A stretch of DNA of 64,000 bases from Opitutia bacterium (GTDB taxonomy: Bacteria > Verrucomicrobiota > Verrucomicrobiia > Opitutales > UBA953): assembly GCA_003569245.1 (NCBI GenBank), contig BGOM01000015.1, positions 1 through 64,000 of the forward strand. Reading direction: 5' to 3'. Within the stretch, counting starts at the first letter, position 1, and each line of letters starts with the position of its first letter. This document shows, piece after piece, positions 26,281 through 52,327 of this stretch. Below the pieces are notes generated by a model, which had not been told where the DNA came from, ran no database searches, and saw only the letters and a list, made by a program, of their open reading frames with translations. The position numbers and the translations under genes were made by a program.

Positions 26281-26288
26281 GGTTGGGC

Positions 26289-29200
26289 ATGAGTTACCGC
26301 CCCGACTTCATCGACAACTCCGAAGGGAATAAGCTATCGGAGGCGATAGCAGGGCACCTCAAGGAGCTCCGCACTAGAAATAGCACTCCGGAGGAACTGT
26401 GCATCGCAACGGCCTACTTTAGGCCTCAGGCGATGGACTTGCTCCAGGATTCGTTCAAAGAGCTTCAAGGCATCCGTCTCCTGATCGGAGCTGAGCCTCT
26501 CCCAGCCGCCAAGGAAGAAGACATGCTACCTGGCGATGCCGATACCGAAGAAGAATACCGCAAGCTAAAGGCAGCAGAAGCGGCCGAAGAACTGATTCGA
26601 AGGCTCAAGCATGACCGAGATCGTCTACCTTTCAGCAAAGAGACGCAGCTCAAGGTGGAGCGCTTCGTTAAATTTCTTGAGACAAATGTCCTTAAAGCAC
26701 GCCAAGTCACTAAAGGCTTCATGCATGCCAAGGCCTATGTCTTCCGGGGCAAAGGGGAACAGCGAGGCTTTATCGCTGGTTCTTCAAACCTCACTCCCTC
26801 AGGTCTCATGAGAAATGCCGAACTAAACCTGGGAATCTATGAAGGTCCCTTACCGGAAAAGGTGGAAAACTGGTTCGATAAACAGTGGAAAGAAGCATCT
26901 GATTTGGACTTGGCTGAGATTTATAGGCACCTCCTGGAGGCCTATCCTCCCTATTATATCTATATCAAGGTGCTCAGTGAGATTTATGGCGCAGATGTCC
27001 TAAGGGAAGATGGAGATAGCAAGATTCCCGTGACTGAATTCCAGCGGCATGGCGTCTGGCGTGCGCTTAAGATCATCGATGAGCTTAACGGTGCGATTAT
27101 CGCTGACAGCGTCGGGCTTGGAAAGACCTTCACGGCTGGCGCCATCATCGAAAAATACAACCAACGTCGACAGCGTGTGTTGGTAATCTGCCCGGCTGCC
27201 GTACGCGACACTACCTGGAAGAAGTTCTTATCGGACTACCAGCTTCTTGCTGACATTGTCTCTTATGAGCAGCTGGCACTGGAGGGCCTCTTGAAGGTGC
27301 CGCCCGAGAAGCTCCCCAAGACGCCTTTCATGCAACAAGGAGGTTCCGCTTTTGGATTTGGTCAGAATGCCTACGTCAGCAACCGGGCTGGATTGAAGCA
27401 GGATAAGCTCGAAAGACATCCAGACGAGTACGCGCTGGTCGTTATCGACGAAGCTCATAACTATCGTAATCCCTACACTCCGACCAGGGCCGCCGTGCTT
27501 CGAAACCTTCTATGGGGTCAACCCAAGGACGTGCTGATGCTCACTGCCACTCCGGTAAATAATTCGCTTTGGGATCTATTTAACATGCTGCGCTTCTTTG
27601 TGCGCCAAGATGCCCAGTTCGCTGCTAGAGGCATCCCCTCTCTCCATGAGAGATTTGACGATGCGATGTCACAGGACCCGAACAACCTGAATCCCGACGA
27701 GCTTTACCCCATCATTGACGCGACTACGGTCAAACGCACGCGCGCCTTCATCAAGAAGTACTACCCCAATGAAGAACTTAAAATCCGCCAATCTGATGGC
27801 TCAATCAAGCTTGTGCCCATCGTTTTCCCGAAACCTGAGGCATTAGTAGTCCGCTATTCCTTCGAAAAGCAACTGGGGCCCTTCTTCAATGCACTAGAGC
27901 ACTGCCTAGCACCTGCCGACGGCGGGGAGCCCACCATCAAGTTTGCCCGTTACCAGGCCGACAGTTACCTCAAAGAAAGCCCGGCCGACGGCGCCAAGGG
28001 AGGCGCTTTACTAGGACTGATCAGAAGCGGCCTTCTTAAGCGCCTCGAATCCTCCGCTTTTGCATTCCACATGACGGTAAGCCGCATGGTCAAAGAGCAT
28101 GAAATCTTCGTTCAGCAGCTTGAGAAAGGAAGAGTCGTCACTACCCAGACATTACGTGACGCGAGCACTGTCGAAGATGACCTCTCTGACGCTGATACGA
28201 TTCAGAAGCAAGAGAAGGCGATTGCACAAGGGGAGTTCGAAAGCGCCGACCTTTACGAAAAGAAAAAACTGCTCAAAGATGTCGAATCTGACCTCAAGGA
28301 ACTCAAAGTCCTTCGCGACATGGTTCGAGAGGCCGCAAACACCGAACGCGACGACAAGCTGGACTCTCTTATCAATGAAATCATCAAGATATCGGCGGAA
28401 GCCGAATCGGAAGTCGTCAGCTCGGGCGGCGCTACCCTGCGTGATCGACGCAAAATTCTGATTTTCTCCTATTTTGCAGATACAGCTGAATGGATTCACA
28501 AAAGGCTTGAAAAGGCGATTCGCGAAGACGCACGCCTAGCTGCATACCGCGAATCGGATTCTTCTCTTACTGGTCAGAACAAAGGCCTTCGCCTGTGCTG
28601 GGTATCCGGAGGCGATGATTCGGACATAAGCGCGAAAGCAGGTGCGGCATGCTTCGCGCCCATAACAGTAGACGTCAAGGGGGCAGTCGACCTTTTCGAC
28701 ATACTCATCACCACGGACGTTCTCGCCGAAGGCGTGAACCTTCAGCAGGCACGTCACATCATCAATTATGATCTTCCGTGGAATCCAATGCGTCTCGTGC
28801 AACGCCACGGACGTATCGACCGCATCGGAAGCAAACATACCCATGTTTACCTTCGAGCCTTTTTCCCTGATGACCGACTGGATGGAATGCTGCAGCTGCA
28901 ACAACGCATCAACAGCAAGATTGCCATGGCTCGCGCGTCTGTCGGATTAACCTCACCTCTTGCTACAGAACACAGCCGAGAAGCGGACTTCACAGAAGGC
29001 GTCGATGTAATCAAGGGACTCGAAGGCGGAGATGCCAGCATCTATGAGGATGGAGGCACTGCTGAATCCTCGCAGACAGCCGAGCAATACCGGCAGGAGC
29101 TACGCAAAGCTCTTTCAGGTCCTATTGATTCAAAGAAACTGGAGGATATGCCCGGCAAGGCCTGGAGCGGACTAGCTAAGGGGAAGACCTACGGATACTT

Positions 29201-29861
29201 CTTCCTAGCTAAAGTTCGCTTCAAGGTGGACCGCAACGGCGTAAAAGAGACCGAGCAGCGCCACTACCTGCGATTTGTCGAGACAGACAAAGATTACACT
29301 CCCTTGATGACCAAGTCTCTCATAGACGGAAAAGCGATCCCTGTCATAGAGCACCGGGAAGCCGCCTGCTTGCGTAAGATCGAATGCACCCCTGAGGATA
29401 ATCAACAAATCAGCCCTGCTGCGCAGGAAGCCGTATACGCCGCATGGGACTTGACGCTAGATAGCATCTCGAGGCAATGGGATTTCTATACTGACCCGAT
29501 GAATACGGCCCCCAAGGTTAGTAGAATTAACTCAAAGGCGGCTGAGCTTATTCGTGATAATCTTGGCGCTGAAGATAATGACATCTCCAAGGAGGATAAA
29601 GAGAAAGCCCTTCGAATCGTGCTTTCTCCATGGACGACCCGCGACGAGAACGTGCTTCGTACTTGGGTCAATTCTACGGCAGAAGGCTTTACCAGCCTTT
29701 CGAAACATAAACATGCGCAGCTACTGGTGAAGAATATCCTGAGCATGGGACTTTCTCCTACTACGCCCGCCGATATCTTACCTCCTATCACAAAGGATAA
29801 CATCGATTTGGTCTGCTGGATGGCACTAGAGCCCGCACCTGCAGCCCATCCAGCTAAGTAG
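26289..29861 (+). CDS. PLD-nuclease / SNF2-type helicase, restriction partner
   Basis: The protein has 1190 residues from the ATG before SYRPDFIDNS; the track's TTG two codons earlier is less likely. Residues ~30-190 form a phospholipase-D-like domain with the half-motif MHAKAYVF...AGSSNLT (~145). Residues ~255-460 hold the helicase lobe 1, with Walker A DSVGLGKT (~273) and DEAH (~386). Lobe 2 includes TTDVLAEGVN and QRHGRIDRIG (~838). This is a Swi2/Snf2-like translocase with a fused nuclease. With the upstream methylase it resembles a split Type ISP-like or DISARM-like restriction system. No DrmA or DrmB is present. Confidence 0.92.
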   Translation: MSYRPDFIDNSEGNKLSEAIAGHLKELRTRNSTPEELCIATAYFRPQAMDLLQDSFKELQGIRLLIGAEPLPAAKEEDMLPGDADTEEEYRKLKAAEAAEELIRRLKHDRDRLPFSKETQLKVERFVKFLETNVLKARQVTKGFMHAKAYVFRGKGEQRGFIAGSSNLTPSGLMRNAELNLGIYEGPLPEKVENWFDKQWKEASDLDLAEIYRHLLEAYPPYYIYIKVLSEIYGADVLREDGDSKIPVTEFQRHGVWRALKIIDELNGAIIADSVGLGKTFTAGAIIEKYNQRRQRVLVICPAAVRDTTWKKFLSDYQLLADIVSYEQLALEGLLKVPPEKLPKTPFMQQGGSAFGFGQNAYVSNRAGLKQDKLERHPDEYALVVIDEAHNYRNPYTPTRAAVLRNLLWGQPKDVLMLTATPVNNSLWDLFNMLRFFVRQDAQFAARGIPSLHERFDDAMSQDPNNLNPDELYPIIDATTVKRTRAFIKKYYPNEELKIRQSDGSIKLVPIVFPKPEALVVRYSFEKQLGPFFNALEHCLAPADGGEPTIKFARYQADSYLKESPADGAKGGALLGLIRSGLLKRLESSAFAFHMTVSRMVKEHEIFVQQLEKGRVVTTQTLRDASTVEDDLSDADTIQKQEKAIAQGEFESADLYEKKKLLKDVESDLKELKVLRDMVREAANTERDDKLDSLINEIIKISAEAESEVVSSGGATLRDRRKILIFSYFADTAEWIHKRLEKAIREDARLAAYRESDSSLTGQNKGLRLCWVSGGDDSDISAKAGAACFAPITVDVKGAVDLFDILITTDVLAEGVNLQQARHIINYDLPWNPMRLVQRHGRIDRIGSKHTHVYLRAFFPDDRLDGMLQLQQRINSKIAMARASVGLTSPLATEHSREADFTEGVDVIKGLEGGDASIYEDGGTAESSQTAEQYRQELRKALSGPIDSKKLEDMPGKAWSGLAKGKTYGYFFLAKVRFKVDRNGVKETEQRHYLRFVETDKDYTPLMTKSLIDGKAIPVIEHREAACLRKIECTPEDNQQISPAAQEAVYAAWDLTLDSISRQWDFYTDPMNTAPKVSRINSKAAELIRDNLGAEDNDISKEDKEKALRIVLSPWTTRDENVLRTWVNSTAEGFTSLSKHKHAQLLVKNILSMGLSPTTPADILPPITKDNIDLVCWMALEPAPAAHPAK

Positions 29862-32030: not shown

Positions 32031-32792
32031 TTATGACTCGTTGATATAAAGGCAAGGAGCCTGTAGGCTGACCCTGGTATAGGCAGTGACGTCGCCGAGG
32101 AGATACTTCAGGCGGATGGCGTCGGGCGCGACCTTTCCGACGAACTCGATTCGCCCCTTGGCGTCATCAGGTACAAGGTCGATCCGGGTAGGATATTTGG
32201 TCGTCAGTGCAGGCATCCATTTCTCCGGCTCATAGACCTCGCGGACGACGCCTTCGTAGACGGCGAAGACATACTTCATCTTTGAGGCACGGCTGAGTCC
32301 GAGAACCCAGACCCCACGGGTGATGTCATATAACTCAGCAGCAGGTATACCGTGCCGATAAAGTTGATTCACGCGTATCAGGATGACCGGGTCGGTGATC
32401 TTAACCGGCTTGGCGGCGTAGTAGCCTTCGAGCTCTGACAATCCCTTGCGGCCGAAACGCAGACTATCCTTGCCCACGACGCGATTAGTCAGGTTCTCCA
32501 AACCTAGCAGACCGATAGCGGCGGCTTCGATATTATAGGCCTCCTGCTCAGTCCGAAGCCCGTGCGCAAGCATCTCGATCCGTGGCTCCAGGCCGGCGGC
32601 GAAGATCTCACGGATGCGCTTCACCTTCGGGTGGTCATCGTCCTCGAACAGGTGGTCTAGGCAGCGCTCGCCCTTCCCTTTGCCGATGTAAAAAACCTTA
32701 CCATCCCGCGGGTCGACATACAGGTAGACGTAATGCCCAAGCCTCTCGGCCATGCCGGGCTTGAGCGATCGGAGATGAGGAGGGATTTTCAT
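32031..32792 (-). CDS. LEM3-like GIY-YIG domain protein
   Basis: The protein has 253 residues. The GIY-YIG core is at ~17-60 (HYVYLYVDPRDGKVFYIGKG), with the basic helix GKGERCLDHLFEDDDHPK, typical of the LEM3-like subgroup. The C-terminal half is an uncharacterised alpha/beta domain (DITRGVWVLGLSRASKMKYV). Start and upstream stop overlap as TAATG, so translation is coupled to the NYN-type gene. It may act on branched or damaged DNA by family analogy; this is inference. Confidence 0.85.
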   Translation of the reverse strand: MKIPPHLRSLKPGMAERLGHYVYLYVDPRDGKVFYIGKGKGERCLDHLFEDDDHPKVKRIREIFAAGLEPRIEMLAHGLRTEQEAYNIEAAAIGLLGLENLTNRVVGKDSLRFGRKGLSELEGYYAAKPVKITDPVILIRVNQLYRHGIPAAELYDITRGVWVLGLSRASKMKYVFAVYEGVVREVYEPEKWMPALTTKYPTRIDLVPDDAKGRIEFVGKVAPDAIRLKYLLGDVTAYTRVSLQAPCLYINES

Positions 32793-34615
32793 TAGCCCAT
32801 ATCCTCCAGGAACCGGGCGAACTCGCCTGGACTAAGATGGTAATTCGACACGGTCTGAACCTGCCCGTCGTTTGATACGGAAATCACCAATGCGTCCTTC
32901 CGGGCATTATGGGCCAGATAATGAACGATTTCCGCATCCGCCTGGCCTTCTCCGGTCTTCTTGATCGTGGGTAACACGAACTTCACGCCCTTATAGGGCG
33001 ATAGGCTCTCGTGATTGGCACCATCTAGGAAAAGCAGGACCCTCGCATTAGCGTCCAAAGAATAGATTCTGCTGACCAGCTTTGCCAAATGCGCGCGCGC
33101 CTCCGGACCGAACGAGAACTTCCCCTTATGGTACTTTGACTCCATCTGCAGCTTCTGGAAGTGCTGATGGACCGTGTGCATGAAGTTATAAGCATCCACG
33201 AAGATGTCCACGGGCTTTCCGGCGTGCAGCGCGGAGCTGAGCTTCTGACGAGTCGACGTCTTCGCGGCTTTTTTGTCGTTTCTCAGGGATTTCTCCCCTG
33301 CGATGAAACGACGAAGGGCATCGCCTTCCTTCCCGTCGATGACCTTGGCATCCACTAGTTTTTCGATCGCTGAAATAAGTCCAGGCAAAGCATCATCAGG
33401 AGCGCTTCGCACGCCTGCCATCATAGCGGCTGTGACCCCGCCCAATGCTTCGGAAGGCTTGAGCGCCTGGCGGCACTTCATGACTTCCTCACGAAGCGTG
33501 GCGTGGGCTCGTACAAGTTCGGGGCTTGGGGAAAGGACCATGGCCATCAGCCGGTCCATTTCCTCGAGCTGTCGGCCGAGAGCGGGCAAGGCGCGCTCTC
33601 GGTTCAGTTCCCAGCGCTGCAGGATGTCCTGCTCGAGCACCGCGGCCTTCGTCTTCTCCAGCAGCTCCGTGGTGACCTTCTCAAGACGCGCCAGCTCAGC
33701 CTGCTCGGCTTCGGCTTTGATTAGCTTGGCAAGCCAAGGGCGGACGACCTCCGAGACCTCATGCTGGACCTGCTCCGCGGCATGCCGCGCGTAGCTATCT
33801 TTGATCGCCTGCAGACTCTCCGGGGTGGCGCCACCGCAATCCTCGATTTCCTTGAGGCGTTCCTTGGCGGCCTTGAGTTCCGCCGTCACCTTCAAGTGCT
33901 CCGACTTAGCCTCGTCGCGCTCTCTCTCGACTTTCTGCAACTTAGCCTCATCGGCCTTGCCGACCTCTCCAGCTGCGACCTGAGCCGCTTTATCTTTTCC
34001 ACGCTGCGCCTCGGCAGCCATTCGCTCCTGCGTCTTAGTCCATTTAAGTCGGGCGTCCTTAAGTTCTTTTTCGGCCTTACATGCTCTAAGCTGTGCATCC
34101 TGTGTGGCCTTGACCTCGTCACGAACCAAAAGGGAGCCAACCGTGATCAACTCAGCGCCCAGTTTCTTGGCGAGTAAATCTACTACCTTCTCGTCGGGGA
34201 GAGGATCAGTTGGCGCCTCCTCGCCTTCAAGCGGGGCATAGAAGCTTTTGGCGCCCCGCTCACCTGACCGGAGATAACGCAATCCAGCGAAGCAACAGTA
34301 AGCCCGTGTAGTGCCTAAGCACTTGACCAACTCATCTGCATGTTTCTTGAAAAACAAATCGCCCTCGACGATTTCGAATGGTTCAAGGAGCTTTCCGTAG
34401 CTGATATCACGGATTAGCAACCCCATGAACTGCGGCAGCCTGGCAGGGTGTTCGGCCAGGTGCTTCTTCACGGCCTCGACCGGCGGCAAAGTCTGATCGA
34501 GCTCCATCCCCTCGGACATGAACTGGAGGTCTTCCTTCGATAACGTAGCCAGATCGGCGGCCAACTGCGCCAAGCAGGTGGCCGCGGTGGGAAGTTGCTG
34601 GACGATTTCCGTCAT
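32792..34615 (-). CDS. Coiled-coil protein with C-terminal NYN/PIN-like RNase domain
   Basis: The protein has 607 residues from the ATG before TEIVQQLPTAAT. Residues ~150-400 are long coiled coils (KAEKELKDARLKWTKTQERM, AELKAAKERLKEIE). Residues ~455-590 form a YacP-like NYN nuclease (VDIFVDAYNFMH, VLLFLDGANHES, GEGQADAEIVHYLA, DALVISVSNDGQV) with the acidic residues that bind metal. It probably cleaves RNA. The coiled coil suggests an oligomeric sensor or scaffold. It heads the operon with two GIY-YIG genes and the HNH gene. Confidence 0.85.
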   Translation of the reverse strand: MTEIVQQLPTAATCLAQLAADLATLSKEDLQFMSEGMELDQTLPPVEAVKKHLAEHPARLPQFMGLLIRDISYGKLLEPFEIVEGDLFFKKHADELVKCLGTTRAYCCFAGLRYLRSGERGAKSFYAPLEGEEAPTDPLPDEKVVDLLAKKLGAELITVGSLLVRDEVKATQDAQLRACKAEKELKDARLKWTKTQERMAAEAQRGKDKAAQVAAGEVGKADEAKLQKVERERDEAKSEHLKVTAELKAAKERLKEIEDCGGATPESLQAIKDSYARHAAEQVQHEVSEVVRPWLAKLIKAEAEQAELARLEKVTTELLEKTKAAVLEQDILQRWELNRERALPALGRQLEEMDRLMAMVLSPSPELVRAHATLREEVMKCRQALKPSEALGGVTAAMMAGVRSAPDDALPGLISAIEKLVDAKVIDGKEGDALRRFIAGEKSLRNDKKAAKTSTRQKLSSALHAGKPVDIFVDAYNFMHTVHQHFQKLQMESKYHKGKFSFGPEARAHLAKLVSRIYSLDANARVLLFLDGANHESLSPYKGVKFVLPTIKKTGEGQADAEIVHYLAHNARKDALVISVSNDGQVQTVSNYHLSPGEFARFLEDMG

Positions 34616-34687
34616 GGGGTGCCCCCACCCTATCCCCACCCCCCGGCTATTGAAGCCAATTATTGCATATTCTTGTGCGTCTACCGC

Positions 34688-34992: not shown

Positions 34993-35985
34993 TCATGGCA
35001 CAATCGAGCTGTTCTTGGCTTTTTTCATCAACTCAAAGAAGCTCTTCCCCCATGTCTCTGCTGAAGGCCTATGGGAGGCGCCGCCTTCGAATGCCTGCCG
35101 AAACAAAGGCTGTAATTCCGGATAATATGACACGAGTCGCTGATGCGGCCTCGGGATTACCTCGAACTTCGATGCCTCGACTCCGCCTACATACATCTTC
35201 GCTTTGATCTTATCCTCAAGTGTGTCGACTCCAGTGACAAACTCTTTTGCTGTTCCGCAATATGGATGAATACCCGTGATCATTTGATAAAAAATCACAG
35301 CCATTGAAAATCGATCCCAGCTCGGGTTCCTAGGCTTGTCGGCCGGCTCAACATATGCCTCGGGAGGCATGTATTCCGGAGTCCCAAGTGGAGCGAGAAA
35401 CTTGCCGAGCTTCTCGCTTAACTGCATGGAGTCCAGATCGACGAACATTATTTCTCCTGAGGTGGGATGGGCGAGCACGTTTGATGGCTTAAAATCCACA
35501 AATACATGCCCTGCCGAATGAAGGCGATGAACTCCGGAGGCGATATTGCACATGAGCGCCAATCGATTTACCCTGCCTCGTAGGGTATCGAAATCAAAGT
35601 AAGCTCCATCAAGCCTCTTTGCGCCAGGGACTACGAACTCGCCAAGGGAGCAGCTGCCCGGCTTTGCTCGCTTCATTAGAAATCCAACGAACACCGAGCC
35701 CTGCTTTAGCTCAGATAACGGCCATCCGAATGCATGCTTGGGCCCGTCTTTCATCGGGTTCTGTAGCATTGCCCAGATTTTCCGTAACCGTTGCTCTCGC
35801 TTTTTCCCCTCTATTGCCTGCTTGCCGTAAAGCTTGGCGCAATAGTCAGCCGCAATGTATCCTGATTGGTTATGGGGAAAGGCCGTTACTTGCAGAACAG
35901 CACCTTCGGCGCCTTCAGTTCCTAACTTATATGAAGATATGAATACTTGCCCATACTTTGCCGAAATATAGACACCGTTCCTCAT
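34993..35985 (-). CDS. Serine/threonine kinase-like protein of TerY-P triad
   Basis: The protein has 330 residues. Kinase lobe features are VFVDFKPSNVL (~160-170, where canonical HRDxKPxN has lost the HRD His-Arg but keeps D-x-K-x2-N), FVDLDSMQ (~178, a DLD version of DFG) and GTPEYMPPE (~200). The Asp in VDFKPSN and the metal-binding Asp are present, so activity is possible. It overlaps the PP2C stop by ATGA and so is co-translated. In TerY-P systems the vWA, PP2C and kinase act together in stress or phage response. Confidence 0.9.
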   Translation of the reverse strand: MRNGVYISAKYGQVFISSYKLGTEGAEGAVLQVTAFPHNQSGYIAADYCAKLYGKQAIEGKKREQRLRKIWAMLQNPMKDGPKHAFGWPLSELKQGSVFVGFLMKRAKPGSCSLGEFVVPGAKRLDGAYFDFDTLRGRVNRLALMCNIASGVHRLHSAGHVFVDFKPSNVLAHPTSGEIMFVDLDSMQLSEKLGKFLAPLGTPEYMPPEAYVEPADKPRNPSWDRFSMAVIFYQMITGIHPYCGTAKEFVTGVDTLEDKIKAKMYVGGVEASKFEVIPRPHQRLVSYYPELQPLFRQAFEGGASHRPSAETWGKSFFELMKKAKNSSIVP

Positions 35986-37325
35986 GGCAGATTAACAGCG
36001 AGCGCAATGGTCTTGTCGTCCCGCTCAGCCTTGAGAGTCGGATTTCCTGCAAGAATGAACTGAGCGAAAAGCCTGTCCGTCTCGTTCTGGACTTCGGGCT
36101 GAGCCATGCCTTTTGTCATAAGCTGACCAGGAAGCTCAACGACCGTCATTGCAATCGATGCCCAGAAATCCGCGGACGGAATATTGGGATCAACCAAAGG
36201 TCCATGGGCTCTGTACTGTGACTTAGTCTTGGTGAACCAGCTAGCGTTTTCGCATCCATCGCTAATACAGAAGACAGCGGAACTCGACAAAGGTATGAAA
36301 TTTGCCTGAACCAATCCCGGTTCGTCACGGAGATGCGTGAGGAACTTTGTCATGTTAGCCTCTCCGCCCTTCATAGGACTGAGTAGCGGAATCCACTGAC
36401 CATCACGCAGGCAGCACCCGGCGCGACCATCCCCAATATGTGCGCATGCGGTGCAGTCGGGCCCGGCAATCAGGAGAATCAAGGTCGACCCATATTCATG
36501 CGCATTCCGTTTCTCCCTTTCGGCCCGCGATGAAACGGCTTCAAGCGCTCCGACGAATGCCTTGTTTGAAATCCTTAGGAATTCCTGCCGTGTTAAAGCT
36601 TCCCCGCTTGACTCGATCGACTCGAGTACGTCTCGCGCCACCCGGGCTGCAGCTGTAACCGCCTCTTCCGCTCCTAAATTTGAATATTTGAGCGACCCTG
36701 CCCCGTCGGCTACGGCAAGAATCACGAACTTCCCCCCTGAAGTGACCACGAGCTGTGAGCGGTCCTGGCACTGGTCTGTAGTTTTCTCGCTCCCATGCAC
36801 AGACCCGCAAGCGTGCCTCCATTGACCGCCCGTACTTCCAGTTAGAACCTTCACCTGAGGCGGAGGGAAATCCGGTGCGTCTACTGGTGCTGATACTTTG
36901 GCTTTTGCCTGAGCCCGCTGTTCAATCTCCGCCTGCTGCGCCTGGGCTCGAAGCGTCTGCAGCTGCTCGTCTTGTGTTTGAACCTTCTTAACTAGGCTGT
37001 CTCGCTCCGTCTGAACCTTCTTCAAACGCAAACCGAGAGCCTTAAGCTCAGATTGAAGAGTGGCATTCGCGTTGTTGGTTTTTTCAAGATCTTGGCGAAG
37101 CTTGATTACTCCTTCAGCACCATTGAACTCAGGCACTTCTTCTGCATCGCTCAAAACCCGCGGCGGCGCTTCAGGATCTGTAACCTGATGTCCGGAATTT
37201 AACTGCCTTCGCTCCTTCCTGAGCCTTCTTGCAGTCTTTCGGTCTTTTTTTCGGCTCATATAAAAACAGCCTAATGCAAATCCCAAGACAACAATCAACA
37301 AAGCCGCCCAAGCGTTTTCTGGCAT
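35982..37325 (-). CDS. Membrane-anchored PP2C-type phosphatase of TerY-P triad
   Basis: The protein has 447 residues. A transmembrane helix (~7-25, AALLIVVLGFALGCFYM) is followed by a basic stop-transfer, a coiled coil (~75-135, LRQDLEKTNNANATLQSELK) and a PP2C_2 domain (~165-447). The metal and active-site motifs are FVILAVADGAGS, GSTLILLIAG, AHIGDGRAGC, CISDGCENASW and RDDKTIALAV. It likely reverses the neighbouring kinase's phosphorylation at the inner membrane. Only 11 bp separate it from the vWA gene. Confidence 0.92.
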   Translation of the reverse strand: MPENAWAALLIVVLGFALGCFYMSRKKDRKTARRLRKERRQLNSGHQVTDPEAPPRVLSDAEEVPEFNGAEGVIKLRQDLEKTNNANATLQSELKALGLRLKKVQTERDSLVKKVQTQDEQLQTLRAQAQQAEIEQRAQAKAKVSAPVDAPDFPPPQVKVLTGSTGGQWRHACGSVHGSEKTTDQCQDRSQLVVTSGGKFVILAVADGAGSLKYSNLGAEEAVTAAARVARDVLESIESSGEALTRQEFLRISNKAFVGALEAVSSRAEREKRNAHEYGSTLILLIAGPDCTACAHIGDGRAGCCLRDGQWIPLLSPMKGGEANMTKFLTHLRDEPGLVQANFIPLSSSAVFCISDGCENASWFTKTKSQYRAHGPLVDPNIPSADFWASIAMTVVELPGQLMTKGMAQPEVQNETDRLFAQFILAGNPTLKAERDDKTIALAVNLP

Positions 37326-37336
37326 GAAAGTTCGGA

Positions 37337-38041
37337 TCAGGACGGGCTCTGTCCGCTATCCCAACTGCCGGTGTTTGACTGAACAGCCTTACCGACATCG
37401 GCGCCTTTCGCAACTTCGGCGATTGTCGCCGAAAGCCACTTGAAGAAATCCGTAAACTTAAGCCCCGACATCTTGTAAACCGGGATTTGGGCCTGCTTGA
37501 TGCGCTCAAGGTAGGCCGGCTTGAACTCATCTACGCCCAAGGAAAGGAAGCAGAAAGTCTTCTGTTGCTCCGCTTGACGAATCTGCTGCGCAAGCTCATC
37601 CCATTTGGCTTCGAATTCCCCACCGAACTCACGCGAATCCGGTTCGCCGTCCGTGATATGGATTACCCAAGGCCGATAATAGCTAAGCCCATTGGTGCGG
37701 TACCAAGCCTTACGATCAGATACCATCTGGATTCCGGCTCGGATAGCCTGGATCGAAAATGTGCCTCCTTCGGCTTTCAGCTCAGGGAGCTGAATGTCGG
37801 CAGCCAACGAGGGCTCGACGACTCGTCGACATTCATGGCTGAAAGCGACAATGCCGATCTCGAGCTTGTTCTTCAAGTTTTCGTCCTCCTGGACCTCCTT
37901 GATGAATGCGGCAAGTCCTGCGACCATGTTAACGAGTCGACTATGCTCTGACATCGATCCGGAGGTATCGACAACCAGCGCGACCGTGCACTTCTGTTCG
38001 TAGTTCTTGGGGCTCTCTGCAGAGAAGGGATTAGTAGTCAT
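37337..38041 (-). CDS. TerY-like vWA domain protein
   Basis: The protein has 234 residues. The MIDAS motif DTSGSMS (~25) with TxD-type partner ITDGEPDS and conserved GGTFSIQAIRAG place it in the TerY group. The vWA domain fills ~18-200. The C-terminal tail is short and Ser/Gly rich (NTGSWDSGQSPS). It is first gene of the vWA-PP2C-kinase operon. TerY proteins bind metal and assemble partner proteins in tellurite and stress systems; no TerC or TerD genes are nearby here. Confidence 0.92.
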   Translation of the reverse strand: MTTNPFSAESPKNYEQKCTVALVVDTSGSMSEHSRLVNMVAGLAAFIKEVQEDENLKNKLEIGIVAFSHECRRVVEPSLAADIQLPELKAEGGTFSIQAIRAGIQMVSDRKAWYRTNGLSYYRPWVIHITDGEPDSREFGGEFEAKWDELAQQIRQAEQQKTFCFLSLGVDEFKPAYLERIKQAQIPVYKMSGLKFTDFFKWLSATIAEVAKGADVGKAVQSNTGSWDSGQSPS

Positions 38042-38107
38042 GTACGTATATTTCTTTAAGGGTTATTTGTTTCAATAACATTATAGTTAGTTCATTCTGA
38101 TTTCTAA

Positions 38108-38644
38108 TCAAGCGCAGCCGCCGTGGCGGCCAAAGCGGGCGATGACCTCAAGGATGTGTTCTGGGACTAAATAGTCGGTATCGATCACGTGCCGGTAGTT
38201 GGATTCGAGAGCGTAATCGTATCCGTATAGTTCCAAGAGGCGGCGCCGAGATTCCTCATTGCGCCTGGTCAGGCTGGCAAAATCCTCGCCGGTCCTTCCA
38301 GCCAGACGTTTGCGAACAACCATGGGTGAAGCCTTCAAGAAGATGCTCATGGCACCCAAGAAAAAGTGGGCTCCCATCCTGAAGTCGACGACCAGGCCGG
38401 CAGCCTGACCGAGTTGTTGCCGAATGGTATTACAAAAGTCGTCGTCGAGCTGCAGGTCGATCGCGGGGTTACCCTCGCACAAGCCTTGGAGGGCGTGCAC
38501 ATCCAAGCCATACTTGGTATGCGCGAATTCTCGGGCATGGTTGCCGGCGGAGTGGAAGACATAACCCAGCTTAGCAGCCAGCGCCTGGCCCACGGTTGTC
38601 TTCCCCGTGCAGGCTTCTCCGCTCAAGATGATGAGGTTTTCCAT
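38108..38644 (-). CDS. P-loop (cytidylate-kinase-like) protein
   Basis: The protein has 178 residues from the ATG before ENLIILSGEACTGKTTVGQ; the longer ORF overlaps the radical SAM gene. Walker A GEACTGKT is at ~9-16. The lid-like region is RTGEDFASLTRRNEESRRRL, close to AAA_18/CMP-kinase-like enzymes. The substrate is probably a nucleotide or small phosphate acceptor; not known. It starts 7 bp after the radical SAM stop, so the two likely act in one pathway. Confidence 0.82.
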   Translation of the reverse strand: MENLIILSGEACTGKTTVGQALAAKLGYVFHSAGNHAREFAHTKYGLDVHALQGLCEGNPAIDLQLDDDFCNTIRQQLGQAAGLVVDFRMGAHFFLGAMSIFLKASPMVVRKRLAGRTGEDFASLTRRNEESRRRLLELYGYDYALESNYRHVIDTDYLVPEHILEVIARFGRHGGCA

Positions 38645-38651
38645 GGTCAGA

Positions 38652-40148
38652 TTAGGCAGCGGCAAGCTGGGCCGAGTCGGTGAACCCGCGATGGATCCGG
38701 TACTCAAGCAACGACGACCAGGGCCAGCGACGGGTCACTTCGATGCCGTAGGCCGAGGGGTTGCTCCCCATCGGGGAAAGCATCTCCAGCTGGAAGGCGT
38801 TATGCTCGATCATCGCCTTAAGCGCAGGTCGCACGGCGACCTCGTCCCGGACAACCTGGAGCCAATGTTGCTCCTCGCGAACATCTGCCCCGGGCAGACC
38901 GGTCAGGTAGTTTATGACGACCGCGACGCCCGCCTCGGCGGCGGCATCCAGGAAGCCGCGGAGCAGCTTCGGTGACTGCGGCTTATTGATGATGTTTTGG
39001 GAGGTGTCGTCGAGGGTCTCGAGGCCGATCTCTAGAGTACGCAAGCCTTCGCCGTACAGACGACGCATGGTCTCCCGATTGAAGCTGTCGTGGAGCTTGG
39101 TGCATGCGCTCCACAAGACCCGGCCCTTGATCATTGCACCGACCTCACGCAGCTGAGTGGGCACAAGGAGACTATCCTTGAAAGAGACCACGGCATCATG
39201 GGCGACCGCCTGCTCGATGACGGGCTCCAAGGCCGTCACAGAAATCTTACGATGCTTACCCTCAATTTTGGGGTAAGTGCAGAAAGAGCACTTGCCGTAG
39301 GCGCAGCCGCGCGAGGCCTGGACGGGCAGGGTCAGGCTACCTTGGCCATAGGACACGAGATCGAAGGAGGGAACCGTAGCGCCGTCTTCCTTGGCACGCC
39401 GGGAAGCCGTGCCAGCTCGGAAGACTTCCGCCGGCCAAGGATTGTCGATGGCTACAGCGTCGAGAAGCTCAACCCAGGTCTTCTCGGCGTACCCGACCAC
39501 GAAGCCGTCGATGCCTTCGCCATAGATTGTATCCTTGCTGATAGGGTCAGCCAAAGCGGTGACATGGGCACCGCCCCAGACGACCGGGACCCCAGGCCAG
39601 ACGGCGCGGATGACCTTGGTGACGGCCAGAGCGGCGATGATCTGACCGCTGAACATGACGGAGAGTCCGACCAAGTCCGGACGCGGAACCTGCTCTAACT
39701 GACGACGCACCCATTCCCCGAATGAGCCTGCGGCCAGGTTGGCGGCGCAGCCGATGATTTCATCGTGTGAAGCGTAGAGCACAACAGTTCGCGATTCCCT
39801 TTCATTAGCGGGGACAGGGACGGGCCAGTGGGTTGAGCAAAGCTCCTGCCACTCCTGGTAAAGACGGTTCAGCTCCTTGGACGGCTTATCATGGTCACCC
39901 TTGATCTGGCCGGAGGTATGGGCGGAGGTGATGCGCTCCTTGATCCATTCTCGGTTGAGATCCAGGACGTCGACCTTGTGTCCGGCGCGTTCGCCCGCCC
40001 CTTTCAGGTAGGCGGGGCCGGCCATCGGCCCCCCGAAGTGCTTGAGGAACGGCGGGACGATGACAACCGACGCGGTCTTCGGTCGAACGTCGGGGATAAC
40101 GGGCAACGGAGCGCCGTCAGTGGTGAGGTAGCTGGATACGTCGATCAT
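38652..40148 (-). CDS. B12-binding-type radical SAM protein
   Basis: The protein has 498 residues. The N-terminal ~230 residues resemble a cobalamin-binding Rossmann domain (PDLVGLSVMFSGQIIAALAV, VPVVWGGAHVTALAD), though no clear DxHxxG is seen. The radical SAM cluster motif is C-x4-C-x2-C in RGCAYGKCSFC (~280). Then SCTKLHDSFNRETMRRLYGE and LEIGLETLDDTSQNIINKPQ follow the usual SAM barrel. The N-terminus may process an unknown substrate. It is paired with the P-loop kinase. A natural-product or nucleotide modification role is inference. Confidence 0.88.
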   Translation of the reverse strand: MIDVSSYLTTDGAPLPVIPDVRPKTASVVIVPPFLKHFGGPMAGPAYLKGAGERAGHKVDVLDLNREWIKERITSAHTSGQIKGDHDKPSKELNRLYQEWQELCSTHWPVPVPANERESRTVVLYASHDEIIGCAANLAAGSFGEWVRRQLEQVPRPDLVGLSVMFSGQIIAALAVTKVIRAVWPGVPVVWGGAHVTALADPISKDTIYGEGIDGFVVGYAEKTWVELLDAVAIDNPWPAEVFRAGTASRRAKEDGATVPSFDLVSYGQGSLTLPVQASRGCAYGKCSFCTYPKIEGKHRKISVTALEPVIEQAVAHDAVVSFKDSLLVPTQLREVGAMIKGRVLWSACTKLHDSFNRETMRRLYGEGLRTLEIGLETLDDTSQNIINKPQSPKLLRGFLDAAAEAGVAVVINYLTGLPGADVREEQHWLQVVRDEVAVRPALKAMIEHNAFQLEMLSPMGSNPSAYGIEVTRRWPWSSLLEYRIHRGFTDSAQLAAA

Positions 40149-40298: not shown

Positions 40299-42185
40299 CT
40301 AACGCCTTAGATCACACCTAATACGCAAACCCGTAATTATTCTCTCTAATTCTAAATCAAAGTTAAAATATATCCCGAACTGGATTTCACCTGCGGTAAT
40401 CAAGGCTTTACGATAGCGCGCTATTTGTAGCTTAGCCTTCTTATCTTCCGTGGCCCTTTCCTTCATCCATAAGGCGGCTGCCATTTCGGGTATACACCAT
40501 GCAGCAACCTCGCCATCCATCGTGCCCTCGTCATTCTTAACTGAAATATCTTCTTCGAACTTTACTTTGGAATCAAAGATAGCGTCGAGTGTCCGGGCAT
40601 AATGGGAAAGCGCCTGATCTAACTGAACTATATACTTTTGCGGAACATTTTGGCAATGCCACGCATTGTGTAACGCGTTTCTTGCCATCAGCATCCAGAC
40701 GATTCCTTTAGGAATATCGAGTGCGTCGTCTTTCTTAAGCCAGGCGATGGCTTCCTCGATATAACTGGTCCCCGGCTTCCCCCTCACATCAATGATGAAA
40801 CGCGGGTTGGATCGCAGACCTGCCCGGTACCTAATTGCAAGCAGCCCAAATTGCCTAGCTTTGGAAGCGGCCTTCAAAATCTCGGGCCTCGAAAGAGATT
40901 CTAAAAGCCTGTCCAACAGTTCGGACGCCCGCCACTCTAGCTTTAATACTACCGCGGCATTTTTCAGGTCCGCAGATAGCCCGTGGGCAGGGTTTCCTTT
41001 CACCATTCGTCCAAGAAGTATTCGCCGTGAAAGGAGGTAAGCCCAACCGAATAGCTTGGAAGCCTGATCATGATCCGTATGGTCGGGGTAAGGATAGGCT
41101 TTGTGGGCATCGATAACCTTCTCCGCAGTGTCCAGCGCCCCATCTGGATTCTTTCTCAACATCTCGGCTTCTGCTTCCATCTTAAAAGCAAATCTCAAAA
41201 GTCCGAACTTCGCCCGGGCGCAATTCACTAAAGGCAATTGTTCGGTTTTCTTGAACGTAAGCTCATCTTGCTGAATTACCTTAGCGACTAGCATCTCGTC
41301 TGCCGAAAGATCCCCCGAGGCAAGATCTGCGAGGCTGGACCATAAGCGACTTATCGCAGGGTTCTCGACATATTCGGTCACAAGCTCGCGTATGAGCGTA
41401 AACTGTTCGTTAGCCTGCGATCTTACGGGGTGAAAATGTATAAGGGCGTCAAAGAGCAGTTGCCACCTTTGCAGTTTTTCCATCTCGGACGTGGATAATG
41501 ATGTAGGCTTAGCGTAACCGCGAGCTGCACCTAGTTCCTCCGGCTTCGACGGGGCGCCAGAGGCATACCAAGCCAATAGCGACTTGCTGGGCGGATCGTC
41601 ATCGCGCGCCCTACCATCGACCGCGATCACTCTGAATACCGACGGATCGGAGCGCAGGAGAAAGGTTAAGTTGTGCGCCATGATTGGGGTCAAAACCACA
41701 CGTCCAACGAGACTAATCAGGCCATCGTATTCTACCTTCGGGAAAATCGAGTGAAGCCGTAGCGATACAGCCACAAAATGGTTAAGGGCGACGCGATAGC
41801 CGATTGGCCCGGGCCAACGCTCGTTTTCAACCTGAGAAAAGTCGGGCATTATCTGGCACAGCCCCGCTTCGACACCCATGAGGGCTTTCTCTACGCGGAC
41901 CGCCGATTCTAAGTAGTCTCCTTCTTTTTTTAACAAAACTCCAAAGCCTTCCTTCATCCTCACCACCAACTTCGTCCTCGAATCTTTGAGAAAGGCGCGG
42001 GCCTTACTTAGTGTTACTTTAAATGAACTAGTTTTCTGGCCGCGCACCAATTGAAGATCGCTTTGCATCTTCGCAGTCATTTGTCCCCTCATTTCCTTGA
42101 GGCCGTAGCGATATAGGCCAGCCAAGGCTTCCGTTAAAAGCAACCCGGCCCACTTGTTGGCGTCTCCAGCTGGGGGGTTATTCAT
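40299..42185 (-). CDS. Large helical protein, family H copy 1
   Basis: The protein has 628 residues from the ATG before NNPPAGDANKW; the longer ORF starts with TTG. It is mostly helical, with no signal or transmembrane segment. It shares with the 48643-50421 protein the signature RYRAGLRSNPRFI (there RYAAGFATNPRYI). The C-terminus has PEM...R...FGIYFN..LELERIITGL (there PEL...YGIYFD..EEERMLTAGL). The function is unknown. It is AT-richer than the host copy and is the last gene before the ~42.2 kb boundary. Confidence 0.75.
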   Translation of the reverse strand: MNNPPAGDANKWAGLLLTEALAGLYRYGLKEMRGQMTAKMQSDLQLVRGQKTSSFKVTLSKARAFLKDSRTKLVVRMKEGFGVLLKKEGDYLESAVRVEKALMGVEAGLCQIMPDFSQVENERWPGPIGYRVALNHFVAVSLRLHSIFPKVEYDGLISLVGRVVLTPIMAHNLTFLLRSDPSVFRVIAVDGRARDDDPPSKSLLAWYASGAPSKPEELGAARGYAKPTSLSTSEMEKLQRWQLLFDALIHFHPVRSQANEQFTLIRELVTEYVENPAISRLWSSLADLASGDLSADEMLVAKVIQQDELTFKKTEQLPLVNCARAKFGLLRFAFKMEAEAEMLRKNPDGALDTAEKVIDAHKAYPYPDHTDHDQASKLFGWAYLLSRRILLGRMVKGNPAHGLSADLKNAAVVLKLEWRASELLDRLLESLSRPEILKAASKARQFGLLAIRYRAGLRSNPRFIIDVRGKPGTSYIEEAIAWLKKDDALDIPKGIVWMLMARNALHNAWHCQNVPQKYIVQLDQALSHYARTLDAIFDSKVKFEEDISVKNDEGTMDGEVAAWCIPEMAAALWMKERATEDKKAKLQIARYRKALITAGEIQFGIYFNFDLELERIITGLRIRCDLRR

Positions 42186-42373
42186 ATATAGGCTTATTAG
42201 ATGCCCCGAATGACCGGTCAAGGCGGTGATGCGCCGCTAACCGTCATCCTTGGCGTTTACCCCAATTTTATGAGCATATTCTACGTCAGCTAACATTTAC
42301 TCCACAATGAGGACCCATCATTCCCCTCCTTATTTACCCAAGATTTATCTCCTGCATATTTGGTTTCATACGC

Positions 42374-43033
42374 ATGAATCCTCTTCTGTATTTATCCCGG
42401 ACGAGCGCCAATGGCTGGACGATCCTCCGCCCGCAGTCCCAGGCTAACCTGCTGGCCGACCTGGCGCAACTGGGTCCGGTCATCCAGACGACGGAGATCA
42501 CCCCGCGGGTCAACGCCAAGGCGGCCTTGGCGACCGATCAGGAGATGGCGCTGCACACGGACCATCCCCGGGCCCGTTGGATCAGCTGGGAGTGCGTCCG
42601 CCAGTCCTCCGAGGGAGGCTACAGCCTACTGAAGGACACCAAGCCCGCGCTTAATTCCCTTTCCGACTCCGAGCGCGACGAACTCCGAGCCCTGACGATT
42701 CGCACGCATGTCGTCTTTCCGGACGATATGGGAGCCTATCCTGTCCTTCGTCAGGATAGAGACGGCGCTGACTGGGTCTACTTCACGCCTTGGATGACGG
42801 ATGGGCAGTCCTCGCCGGCGTTCCGCAAGTTCATCCAGGCGCTCGAGGCCACCCCGACCCTTACCCTCCGTCTCTACCCCGGGGAATCCCTGCTCATCGA
42901 TAACGGCCGCATGCTGCATGGCCGCTCGGCACTCGGCGGCGACAAAGACCGCCTCCTGATCCGCCGATGGATCGCCTCCCCTTTCGACACTTTCGGCCGC
43001 ACCCGCGGCCTAGAAGCCAACGCCGTCGGCTAA
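42374..43033 (+). CDS. TauD/TfdA-like Fe(II)/2-oxoglutarate oxygenase
   Basis: The protein has 219 residues. The iron ligands are probably His-x-Asp in LHTDHPRARW (~57) and the distal His in NGRMLHGRSALGG (~180), with RLLIRRW after it for 2-oxoglutarate binding. This is the TauD/TfdA layout at short length. The substrate is unknown. It lies 24 bp before the GRDP-like gene with the Cys-rich tail, so it may hydroxylate a partner or a product of that operon. Confidence 0.85.
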   Translation: MNPLLYLSRTSANGWTILRPQSQANLLADLAQLGPVIQTTEITPRVNAKAALATDQEMALHTDHPRARWISWECVRQSSEGGYSLLKDTKPALNSLSDSERDELRALTIRTHVVFPDDMGAYPVLRQDRDGADWVYFTPWMTDGQSSPAFRKFIQALEATPTLTLRLYPGESLLIDNGRMLHGRSALGGDKDRLLIRRWIASPFDTFGRTRGLEANAVG

Positions 43034-45060: not shown

Positions 45061-46512
45061 ATGAAACCGATCATTCCCTCCATGCCCTTCCTGGGCTTCC
45101 CTTCCGACCTGGTGCTCGCCGGGTTCCGGCCGGTCCGCGGCCTGCTGGTCGAGACGCCGGCGCCGGCCCTCACGCCCGAACAGGCGCGCGGCGAGTTCGA
45201 GTCGCTGGGCGACCTGCTCGACCTGCATGATCCGCGGCCGCTGCTCGCGGCGATCGCCCGCGAGATGGGCTATGACGCCGACCTGATCGCGGCGGGCGAG
45301 TGCGAGACGGGGGTGCCGGGGCATTCCTGGACGACGTATTGCGACGAGTCGTGGTTGCCGATGCTGGTGCGCTGGGAGGCGGGCGACGCCCAGCTGGTGC
45401 TGTCCTTGTGCGAGACGTTCGAACGCGGGGGCCGGCCGGACCTGCGCCTGACGGTCCTGGGGGATGCGGCGGCGTTGCCGATCCTGCGCCGGCTGGCGGT
45501 GGCGCTCTCCCCGTTCCACTTGTGCCGGCCCGACCTGTGCCAAGGGCCGGTGGCATTCGACGGGCGGACGCATTCGCTGCTCGTGCCCGAGATCGCCTTG
45601 AACCGCTTCGGGATCGGCGCCCATGTCTGCGGGGACGCAGCGGGGCGGATCGGCGCGGCGCGGGCGGAGGGGCTGGCCGACATCGCACGGTCGTGCAACC
45701 TGAGCTCGATGCAGGTGGAGGTGACGGGGATGAAGCCGGACGAGCTCCAGCTCTGGCTGCCCCCGGGACCGGGGCCGACCATGACCTACCCGGCCGACCG
45801 GGCGCTGGCGCCGGAAATCATCGAGTTGATCCAACGGCAGAGCGTCGGGGAAGTCCGCCGACTGGCGACCGAGGCGATCGCCAGCCGCCTCGAGGGGCGG
45901 GCGGAATTCGGACGACGTCCGGATAACTTGCTCTTCGGGATGGGGCAGCAGTCTCCGACGCTCATCGCGCAGCGCCTGCACCTGGCGGGTCTGCTCCACG
46001 AGATCGAGTACCTGCCGGTCGACCGCAAGGGGCTGTTCAGCCGGCCGTTCGGCACCTACCAGCTGGCCCTGGGCGACACCTCGGTCGGGCCGGCGTTCCG
46101 GCGACCCGACGACGAGGTGCTCGCGGGCACCGAGCATCGCACCTACGGGCGGGAGGCCACGACCGGGATCGACTTGTTGGGGCTCGGGATCCTGGCGGTG
46201 GAGCACTACCTGAAGCACCTGCGGTCGGGCCAACCGCCCGCCGAACTGCGCGAGCCGCCGAAGGCCGGCATCCCTGTGCCGGAATTCGGGGATATGCGAA
46301 AGTTGCCCGGCGCTCCGCGCGCGCGGTTGATGCCGATCGAGAAGCCGTCCTTCGGTATCCATCTCGGCCTGCCGGTACGCGTAGACCGTAGCGTAGTCGT
46401 CTGGCGGTCGGACGATCCGCAGGCGCTCGCGATCGACTTCGCGGCGGGAACGGGCGGGGTCCACCTCGCGGGGATGCGGAGGTGTCCGGTGCCGGTGAAG
46501 GCGGGGAGGTGA
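45061..46512 (+). CDS. Uncharacterised ~480 aa protein, paralogue P3
   Basis: The protein has 483 residues and is high-GC. It shares with the proteins at 9534 and 50885 the N-terminal pattern GYDADLIAAGECETGVPGHS then LPMLVRW, and the C-terminal GLPVRVDRSVVVWR...PQALAIDF. It diverges more than the other two, and its N-terminus has extra residues (PIIPSMPFLGFP). No signal peptide and no catalytic motif are seen. It follows the small Gly-rich gene's terminator. Confidence 0.82.
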   Translation: MKPIIPSMPFLGFPSDLVLAGFRPVRGLLVETPAPALTPEQARGEFESLGDLLDLHDPRPLLAAIAREMGYDADLIAAGECETGVPGHSWTTYCDESWLPMLVRWEAGDAQLVLSLCETFERGGRPDLRLTVLGDAAALPILRRLAVALSPFHLCRPDLCQGPVAFDGRTHSLLVPEIALNRFGIGAHVCGDAAGRIGAARAEGLADIARSCNLSSMQVEVTGMKPDELQLWLPPGPGPTMTYPADRALAPEIIELIQRQSVGEVRRLATEAIASRLEGRAEFGRRPDNLLFGMGQQSPTLIAQRLHLAGLLHEIEYLPVDRKGLFSRPFGTYQLALGDTSVGPAFRRPDDEVLAGTEHRTYGREATTGIDLLGLGILAVEHYLKHLRSGQPPAELREPPKAGIPVPEFGDMRKLPGAPRARLMPIEKPSFGIHLGLPVRVDRSVVVWRSDDPQALAIDFAAGTGGVHLAGMRRCPVPVKAGR

Positions 46513-50771: not shown

Positions 50772-50839
50772 TTTTTCGTGCGACGTGGGACGCCTAGGCG
50801 GGGGCGGGATATGGTTTTGCGAGGCGTGCTTTGTGCGAC
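50772..50839 (+). promoter_or_regulatory. Paired TGCGAC upstream motif of paralogue P2
   Basis: TTTTTCGTGCGAC (50772-50784) and TTTGTGCGAC (50830-50839) lie 55 bp apart, 46 bp before the P2 start. The counterpart at P1 has a 45-bp spacing. No such pair is seen upstream of P3. Confidence 0.4.
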
Positions 50840-50884
50840 TTTCGCCCTCGGCATAGTTTTGGGCTAGGGACCCCTATTTATGCC

Positions 50885-52327
50885 ATGCTACCCCTCCAAT
50901 CCATCCCCACCGAGATTATCCGCAAGACCTTCGAACCGACCCGCGGTTTCATCCTCGCCCTCGACGTCGCCCTGGCGCCCGAGGACCGCCCGCTGCGCCA
51001 CCTGGCCGGGGCGACGATGAGCCCGCTGAGCGCCGACAAGGCCGGCGAGCTGGCCGTCGACTTCGACCCGCTCTTCCAGGTCTTCGTCGACCTGTTCGGT
51101 TATGACCTCGCGCTGCTGCGCGCCGGCGATGGCGACTGTGGCGTCGACGGCCACGACTGGAACCTGTTCGGCCGTCGCGACCGGATCCCGCTCGTGATCC
51201 GTTGGCGGATGCCGGCGGGCGCCGAAGCGATCCTGGCGATCGGCGACAAGCACGAGGGCGTCTCCGACCTGTATCTCACGGGCGTGGCCAACCGCGCGAT
51301 GGAGCCGCACTTGGCCAAGGTCTTCGCGGCGCTGCGGGAACTGCCTGCGGTCAACGGCGAGGACGTGATCAACATGCCGGCAGGCAACGTGCTCCAGAAG
51401 CTGGTGACGCCCTACACGCTGACGGATAGCTTCAGTACGGGCCTGGCGGTCGCCGGGGAGAAGCTGGGGCTGACGGCGCTGGCGGAGGCGGAGCTCGCGC
51501 AGCTGCGGTTCTCCTGCGCCATCGGCGGGCGGGCGAGCCACAAGGTGGTCGGCAACCTGACCGCAGCGCGCCGCCGCGAGGTGCTGGCCGATCTCGCGCC
51601 GGGCACGCGGGCGCTCACGCTGACGCCCGAAGGTCGGTTCGCCCTGACGTTCGGGCCGGAGGAGCCGATCCCGGGGACGGTGATCGCGGCGATCCACGCC
51701 CACTCGGTGAAAGACGCCGAACGCACGATGGGTCTGATCCTGCGGGAGTCGTTCAAGCGGCAAGCCGAGCGCGTGCAGGACTACCTGCAGGACGAGGGCT
51801 TGGACATGAACCCGGGGAGCGTCGAGGAGGCCGAGCGCGCGGCGGCGCTGCGCGATGCGATGAGCACGTTCGAGGAGATGGCCGACGAAGTCCGCCTGAA
51901 CCTCCGGGTGACCTTCAGCGACGACTTCAAGGGTACGCCGGCCAAGACGCTGCTCGGGACGCGGCCGCTGCCCGGCCTCCGCGGCGGGCACGTGATGAAC
52001 TCGCCCGACATGCTCTGGCAGGCGCTCTTCCAGGCCTTCCGCGAGACGACCGACCGCCTCATCGACGGCGGCAAGCCCCGTCAGCTCAACGCCCGGATGA
52101 TCGTGAGCGCCGACAAGGAACTGGAGCGCGACCACGAGGCGATGCGCCACCGTTTCGAGTCGCTGACGACCCCCTACTCCACCCTCGTCCGCGGCCTGCC
52201 CATGCGCGTGACCAAGTCGTCGTTCGTCTGGCGCGAGGACGAGGACGAAGGCCTGGCGTGCGATTACGTCTTCGACGCCACCCACCGCGAGCTGCACTTC
52301 GTCGCCCTTTACCGGGCGAGGGTGTGA
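50885..52327 (+). CDS. Uncharacterised ~480 aa protein, paralogue P2
   Basis: The protein has 480 residues from the ATG before LPLQSIPTEIIRK, the start shared with P1. It is the closest paralogue of P1: GYDLALLRAGDGDCGVDGHD then WNLFGRRDRIPLVIRW at ~85-120, and GLPMRVTKSSFVWRED...GLACDY at the C-terminus. The middle (~170-400) is helical and charged. It is soluble with no signal. The helical family H protein upstream is on the same strand, and the same family pair recurs near 40-46 kb. Confidence 0.85.
   Translation: MLPLQSIPTEIIRKTFEPTRGFILALDVALAPEDRPLRHLAGATMSPLSADKAGELAVDFDPLFQVFVDLFGYDLALLRAGDGDCGVDGHDWNLFGRRDRIPLVIRWRMPAGAEAILAIGDKHEGVSDLYLTGVANRAMEPHLAKVFAALRELPAVNGEDVINMPAGNVLQKLVTPYTLTDSFSTGLAVAGEKLGLTALAEAELAQLRFSCAIGGRASHKVVGNLTAARRREVLADLAPGTRALTLTPEGRFALTFGPEEPIPGTVIAAIHAHSVKDAERTMGLILRESFKRQAERVQDYLQDEGLDMNPGSVEEAERAAALRDAMSTFEEMADEVRLNLRVTFSDDFKGTPAKTLLGTRPLPGLRGGHVMNSPDMLWQALFQAFRETTDRLIDGGKPRQLNARMIVSADKELERDHEAMRHRFESLTTPYSTLVRGLPMRVTKSSFVWREDEDEGLACDYVFDATHRELHFVALYRARV

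What the first reader, a model, noticed from the sequence alone, without database searches (positions are those of the whole stretch)
34993..38041. Compact TerY-P triad with atypical kinase catalytic loop
vWA, membrane-anchored coiled-coil PP2C and kinase lie in tight succession (11-bp gap, then 4-bp ATGA overlap). The kinase reads VDFKPSN instead of HRDxKPxN and DLD in place of DFG. The membrane anchor plus coiled coil on the phosphatase suggests it senses something at the inner membrane. No terC or terD-like gene is nearby, so this may be a stand-alone version.
Basis: partly seen in the sequence, partly recalled or inferred. Interest (0 to 1): 0.5.

Follow-up and report, generated by a model that had tools for sequence, protein, structure and literature searches.

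The report
Stand-alone vWA–phosphatase–kinase switch in defence island
Three adjacent bacterial genes encode a protein kinase, its opposing membrane-anchored phosphatase and a vWA partner, a swappable phosphorylation switch in an antiviral-defence region; the kinase's odd-looking active site is normal for its family, and the uncommon part is the anchor on the phosphatase.

Summary
The three genes, 11-bp gap, ATGA overlap and motifs are real. The triad is a member of the known vWA–PP2C–kinase kind (TerY-P; E. coli yegL-pphC-yegI). The 'atypical' kinase motif is the family rule: in 106 relatives the HRD Asp and both Asp of DxD (in place of DFG) are invariant, and His/Arg of HRD occur in only 3 and 2. 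All catalytic residues are present and AlphaFold gives a full bilobal kinase (pLDDT 90.5). Stand-alone is also normal: of 93 triads, TerD lay nearby in two, both in the ter branch; this genome has no TerD, and its one TerC is on another contig. What is less usual is the phosphatase: N-out TM helix, 74-residue coiled coil, cytosolic PP2C. That places it in a fully supported 20-locus clade holding all 13 of 93 triads with an N-terminally anchored PP2C, many with a signal peptide and extracytoplasmic domain. Here the phosphatase is the only anchored part and the kinase is a bare domain. Within the genus the triad is an exchangeable cassette (2 of 55 genomes) in a defence hotspot. Best reading: a membrane-tethered phosphorylation switch for phage/stress defence. 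New variant of a known kind; function untested.

The parts
37337..38041 (-). vWA protein (TerY/YegL-like), 234 aa; MIDAS DxSxS (D25,S27,S29), T94, D131 conserved
   Evidence: Pfam VWA_2; alignment A2, MIDAS residues invariant in 10; PADLOC TerY only weak, E 4e-4
35982..37325 (-). PP2C-type Ser/Thr phosphatase, 447 aa: TM 5-23 (N-out), coiled coil 70-143, PP2C domain 168-446 with D188, D207, D299, D356, D437 metal ligands
   Evidence: Pfam PP2C_2; alignments A3/A6/A8; AlphaFold pLDDT 86; PDB fold matches tPphA, PstP
34993..35985 (-). Ser/Thr kinase, 330 aa, bare catalytic domain; K51, D164, K166, N169, D183, D185
   Evidence: Pfam Pkinase; AlphaFold pLDDT 90.5 pTM 0.91; PDB kinase folds
38105..38145 (-). 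41-bp remnant of the 3' end of a 251-264 aa genus gene (codes ...ARFGRHG..A*), the upstream edge of the swapped segment; here the tail of the NMP-kinase ORF
   Evidence: 90% match in L175, aligned with L073 and L175
34606..34664 (-). downstream edge: start of the 615-aa gene, shared with L073 (88%) and L174
32792..34639 (-). neighbouring 615-aa coiled-coil protein with NYN/PIN-like C-terminal motifs (read by eye, no Pfam hit); occurs without the triad in two genomes, so not counted as a triad component

Best explanation
A stand-alone TerY-P/YegLKI-type phosphorylation switch, carried as a mobile cassette in a defence island. Shown by sequence: a catalytically equipped kinase, a catalytically equipped PP2C predicted to be tethered to the cytoplasmic face of the inner membrane by one TM helix and a coiled coil, and a vWA protein with an intact metal site, arranged as one operon. 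Inferred: the coiled coil oligomerises the phosphatase at the membrane; the vWA protein docks kinase, phosphatase and substrate through its Mg2+ site; the phosphatase keeps the soluble kinase and its targets dephosphorylated at rest; a phage- or envelope-linked cue relieves this, and kinase-driven phosphorylation of cell or phage proteins halts infection. The anchor, carried by the kinase in YegI, is here carried only by the phosphatase.
For: Family and catalytic residues. E. coli YegI autophosphorylates and PphC dephosphorylates it (as cited in PMC13232886). Stand-alone TerY-P systems protect against T7-like phages (PMC11090510, PMC7699616), and in P. aeruginosa against Autographiviridae with cell survival (PMC10889362). 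Neighbours: type IIG R-M and HKD-SNF2 helicase, HNH, PDC-S14, PD-T4-3, in a low-GC island at 16-42 kb. Patchy cassette in 2 of 55 genus genomes, replaced by a beta-CASP/MBL protein or absent at the same place in others. Purifying selection; TM and coiled coil conserved 61% and 59% while the linker between them is 12%.
Against: No phage assay. PADLOC does not call the triad (TerY E 4e-4, and only 3 of 10 family vWAs match). The kinase lacks the C-terminal OB-fold or zinc ribbon of described TerY-P kinases. YegIKL itself has no known defence role. Guilt by location alone supports defence.
Confidence: 0.55

Rival explanations
1. Same biochemistry but a general envelope or stress signalling switch, like E. 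coli yegL-pphC-yegI, with no role in phage defence; it lies in the island only because islands collect mobile genes.
For: Nearest functional precedent is YegIKL; the clade has receptor-like PP2Cs with extracytoplasmic domains and FtsK-like neighbours in Bacteroidota rather than plain defence genes.
Against: Patchy presence, cassette swapping with other modules and a dense set of defence genes around it.
Confidence: 0.3
2. Part of a longer operon with the upstream NMP kinase and B12 radical SAM gene, regulating a nucleotide-like metabolite.
For: Same strand, 66-bp gap to the NMP-kinase ORF; the NMP kinase resembles viperin-associated kinases.
Against: The radical SAM gene is conserved in G008 and G004 without the triad, L073 has the triad without it, and a recombination edge lies between them at 38105-38145.
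Confidence: 0.05
3. A ter-type metal/tellurite response module whose ter genes lie elsewhere.
For: vWA/TerY name and triad order.
Against: No TerD in a 91%-complete genome, TerC alone on another contig and widespread in control genomes, no TerD in the whole 20-locus clade; the ter-linked triads form a separate deep branch.
Confidence: 0.04
4. The kinase is a pseudokinase that only binds.
For: H, R of HRD and F, G of DFG are missing.
Against: All residues that contact ATP-Mg and the phosphoacceptor are conserved (K51, D164, K166, N169, D183); YegI with the same DxD motif, and N in place of K166, is reported active.
Confidence: 0.06

Closest known systems
E. coli yegL (vWA) - pphC/yegK (PP2C) - yegI (kinase)
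   Same: Gene order, stand-alone, DxDS motif in place of DFG, no HRD His/Arg; an inner-membrane component
   Different: There the kinase is anchored (TM about residue 392) with a long C-terminal part and PphC is soluble, 253 aa; here the PP2C is anchored and the kinase is bare
TerY-P antiphage system (Gao et al. 2020)
   Same: vWA + PP2C + Ser/Thr kinase, no other ter genes, defence context
   Different: Kinase there is described with a C-terminal OB fold (PMC11090510); none here. PADLOC TerY model barely matches (E 4e-4)
ter operon vWA/PP2C/kinase genes of Klebsiella plasmids (L009)
   Same: Three protein kinds; DVDGL for DFG
   Different: TerD in the locus, three vWA genes, separate deep branch
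Membrane-anchored-PP2C triads of Bacteroidota, Herpetosiphon, Marithrix, Thiomargarita (L074-L087)
   Same: Same fully supported clade, PP2C with N-terminal anchored extension
   Different: Most have an extracytoplasmic domain and a kinase with its own C-terminal part; several sit by FtsK-like ATPases

Membership tests
vWA-PP2C-kinase triad (TerY-P / YegLKI kind) | Adjacent genes for vWA, PP2C and Ser/Thr kinase, same strand | tested here: met
vWA-PP2C-kinase triad (TerY-P / YegLKI kind) | Kinase with D...DxD signature instead of HRD...DFG | tested here: met
   D164, D183, D185 invariant in 106/106
vWA-PP2C-kinase triad (TerY-P / YegLKI kind) | vWA MIDAS intact; PP2C metal ligands intact | tested here: met
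Gao-type TerY-P antiphage system | Kinase fused to C-terminal OB fold (or zinc ribbon in CoCoNuT TerY-P) | tested here: not met
   Kinase ends with the catalytic domain, 330 aa
Gao-type TerY-P antiphage system | PADLOC TerY model match | tested here: inconclusive
   E 4.4e-4, no stretch passes on its own; only 3 of 10 family vWAs match
Gao-type TerY-P antiphage system | Protects against phage | not testable with these tools
   needs a plaque assay
ter tellurite/stress operon | TerD/TerC genes linked | tested here: not met
Clade with N-terminally membrane-anchored PP2C | Phylogenetic position and N-terminal TM on PP2C | tested here: met
   20-locus clade support 1.0; 13/20 anchored inside, 0/73 outside

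The most novel reading that the evidence does not exclude
The phosphatase, not the kinase, is the receptor of this clade: a family of membrane PP2Cs with fast-changing extracytoplasmic or coiled-coil N-termini that gate a soluble or anchored DxD-type kinase, reversing the usual receptor-kinase logic and linking envelope events to defence.
Probability: 0.3. Interest if true: 0.5.

Novelty: new variant of a known kind. Interest (0 to 1): 0.33.

Why it matters
It moves the surprise from the kinase motif (ordinary) to the phosphatase: a well-supported clade in several phyla puts the membrane anchor, and often an extracytoplasmic domain, on the PP2C of a vWA-PP2C-kinase switch. That gives a concrete, testable idea of where such switches receive their signal, which to my knowledge is unknown for TerY-P and for YegIKL. 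The bare kinase and short anchored PP2C of this locus would be the minimal construct for such tests.

Tried and rejected
(1) Kinase as degenerate: rejected by the 106-sequence motif count. (2) Sequence error: rejected by L073. (3) Ter linkage: rejected. (4) The 615-aa gene downstream as a fourth component: its start is shared with L073, but homologues at 47% and 38% occur in genomes without the triad, so it is treated as a hotspot neighbour. (5) Operon with radical SAM/NMP kinase: rejected. (6) The first kinase alignment was too diverse for a contig scan; the vWA alignment was used instead. (8) Promoter, terminator and Rfam scans gave nothing above chance. (9) The 2012 Ter paper and the two YegI/PphC papers are not held in the library, so whether the anchored-PP2C clade was noted there could not be checked.

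Full report
OBSERVATION. The three minus-strand genes exist as described: vWA 37337-38041, 11-bp gap, PP2C 35982-37325, ATGA overlap, kinase 34993-35985. Pfam confirms all three domains. The kinase reads FVDFKPSN and DLDSMQ.

KINASE MOTIF. phmmer aligns D164 to the HRD Asp and D183 to the DFG Asp of human kinases. In a small family alignment K51, D164, D183 and D185 are invariant. In 106 kinases of the family, most of them fetched through their vWA neighbour and so not chosen by kinase sequence, D164, D183 and D185 are invariant in 106/106. His of HRD occurs in 3, Arg in 2; position 166 is K in 36 and N in 53. So 'no HRD, DxD for DFG' is the signature of this family, and the window kinase is nearer to textbook than E. 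coli YegI (VGDVNQNS, DSDSF). YegI is cited as an autophosphorylating kinase and PphC as its phosphatase (PMC13232886). The model of the window kinase is a complete two-lobed kinase (pLDDT 90.5, pTM 0.91) whose best folds in the PDB are CaMKII, PDK1 and phosphorylase kinase.

FAMILY. Relatives were found on plasmids, in 30 of 388 genomes of the phylum and across bacteria and Methanoregula archaea. Stand-alone triads are usual: in 93 triads placed on a concatenated tree, TerD lay in the fetched flanks only in L009 and L067, which sit together on a separate branch. The window genome has no TerD and a lone TerC on another contig. So the absence of ter genes is ordinary.

PHOSPHATASE. The 447-aa PP2C has one TM helix (5-23, net charge +6 after it, so PP2C in the cytosol), a long helix 70-143 predicted at high confidence, and a PP2C domain 168-446 like tPphA and PstP, with all metal-ligand Asp conserved. 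Against L073 the TM stretch is 61% and the coiled coil 59% identical while the linker between them is 12%, so both are kept by selection. On the tree (LG, 779 columns, 93 triads, midpoint root) window + L073 fall in a 20-locus clade (support 1.0). Every triad with an N-terminal TM before the PP2C domain is inside it: 12 by the threshold plus L073, which is just under it, i.e. 13/20 inside and 0/73 outside. The relatives were ranked by likeness to the window's vWA, which enriches the clade but does not explain its exclusive anchor. Several members add a signal peptide and a 70-280 aa extracytoplasmic part before the TM (L077, L079, L082, L085, L087). Outside the clade anchors are mostly on the kinase, and in one branch at the C-terminus of the PP2C. 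In the window and L073 the kinase has no C-terminal part (0-2 aa) while the rest of the clade has 42-484 aa, so the phosphatase is the only anchored component.

CONTEXT. The region 16-42 kb has lower GC than its flanks and holds a type IIG R-M protein, an HKD-SNF2 helicase, HNH, PDC-S14 and PD-T4-3 genes. In the genus the triad is in 2 of 55 genomes (the second is the L073 genome, an uncultured Opitutae MAG). Comparison with L073, L174 and L175 shows a modular site: a 251-264 aa gene ending ...ARFGRHGRGA, then either the triad (L073) or a beta-CASP/MBL protein (L175), then the 615-aa gene; in L174 the 615-aa gene has no triad beside it. In the window the 251-aa gene has been replaced by other genes, and its last 41 bp survive at 38105-38145 as the tail of the NMP-kinase ORF. 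The radical SAM unit upstream occurs without the triad. The triad is therefore a self-contained exchangeable cassette.

MECHANISM. Shown by sequence: enzymes, predicted anchor, operon layout, cassette, selection. Inferred: antagonism of kinase and phosphatase (precedent YegI/PphC), docking by the vWA metal site, membrane oligomerisation through the coiled coil, and a defence output (precedents: TerY-P in Gao et al. as described in PMC11090510 and PMC7699616; P. aeruginosa TerY-P in PMC10889362). I put the defence reading at 0.55 and a general stress switch at 0.3.

NOVELTY. Member of a known kind; the N-anchored PP2C with a bare kinase is a variant I did not find described in the papers held. 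The main 2012 Ter paper is not held, so prior description cannot be excluded.

Noticed in passing
window 38652-40148(-), 40299-42221(-), 42374-43033(+): B12-binding radical SAM protein, a 640-aa protein without Pfam hit and a 2OG-oxygenase form a unit largely conserved in another genome of the genus (L184); looks like a small biosynthetic cluster.
   Followed up: partly
window 38108-38707(-): NMP/CMP-kinase-like ORF matching PADLOC pVip-kinase (9e-32) and VakA, but beside a B12 radical SAM gene rather than viperin; its last codons come from a different gene.
   Followed up: partly
window 22144-29861(+): Type IIG restriction-methylase (full-length match to PADLOC model PDLC03620, 3339 bits) next to an HKD+SNF2 helicase resembling DrmD.
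   Followed up: partly
window 32792-34639(-); L174:6784-8604; L175:8093-9913: 615-aa coiled-coil protein with NYN/PIN-like C-terminal motifs, no Pfam or PDB hit, with diverged homologues in most genomes of the genus; possible uncharacterised nuclease of the hotspot.
   Followed up: partly
window 7838, 14490, 46710, 48553, 52486, 52799, 54710, 58281, 60214; L175:81-250, 4548-4582: Dispersed 27-43 bp near-identical repeats on both strands, shared with another genome of the genus; REP-like intergenic element.
   Followed up: no
L074, L077, L082, L085: Bacteroidota triads of the same clade sit beside an FtsK/SpoIIIE-family ATPase and partner genes; L077 and L079 have two vWA genes.
   Followed up: partly
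L042, L044, L052, L056, L057, L060: In another branch the PP2C carries a C-terminal TM instead, so anchoring of the phosphatase seems to have arisen more than once.
   Followed up: no
window 45061-46512, 48643-50421, 50831-52327; L073:791-4401; L174:8969-10489: Two families of long uncharacterised proteins recur around the hotspot in the genus.
   Followed up: no
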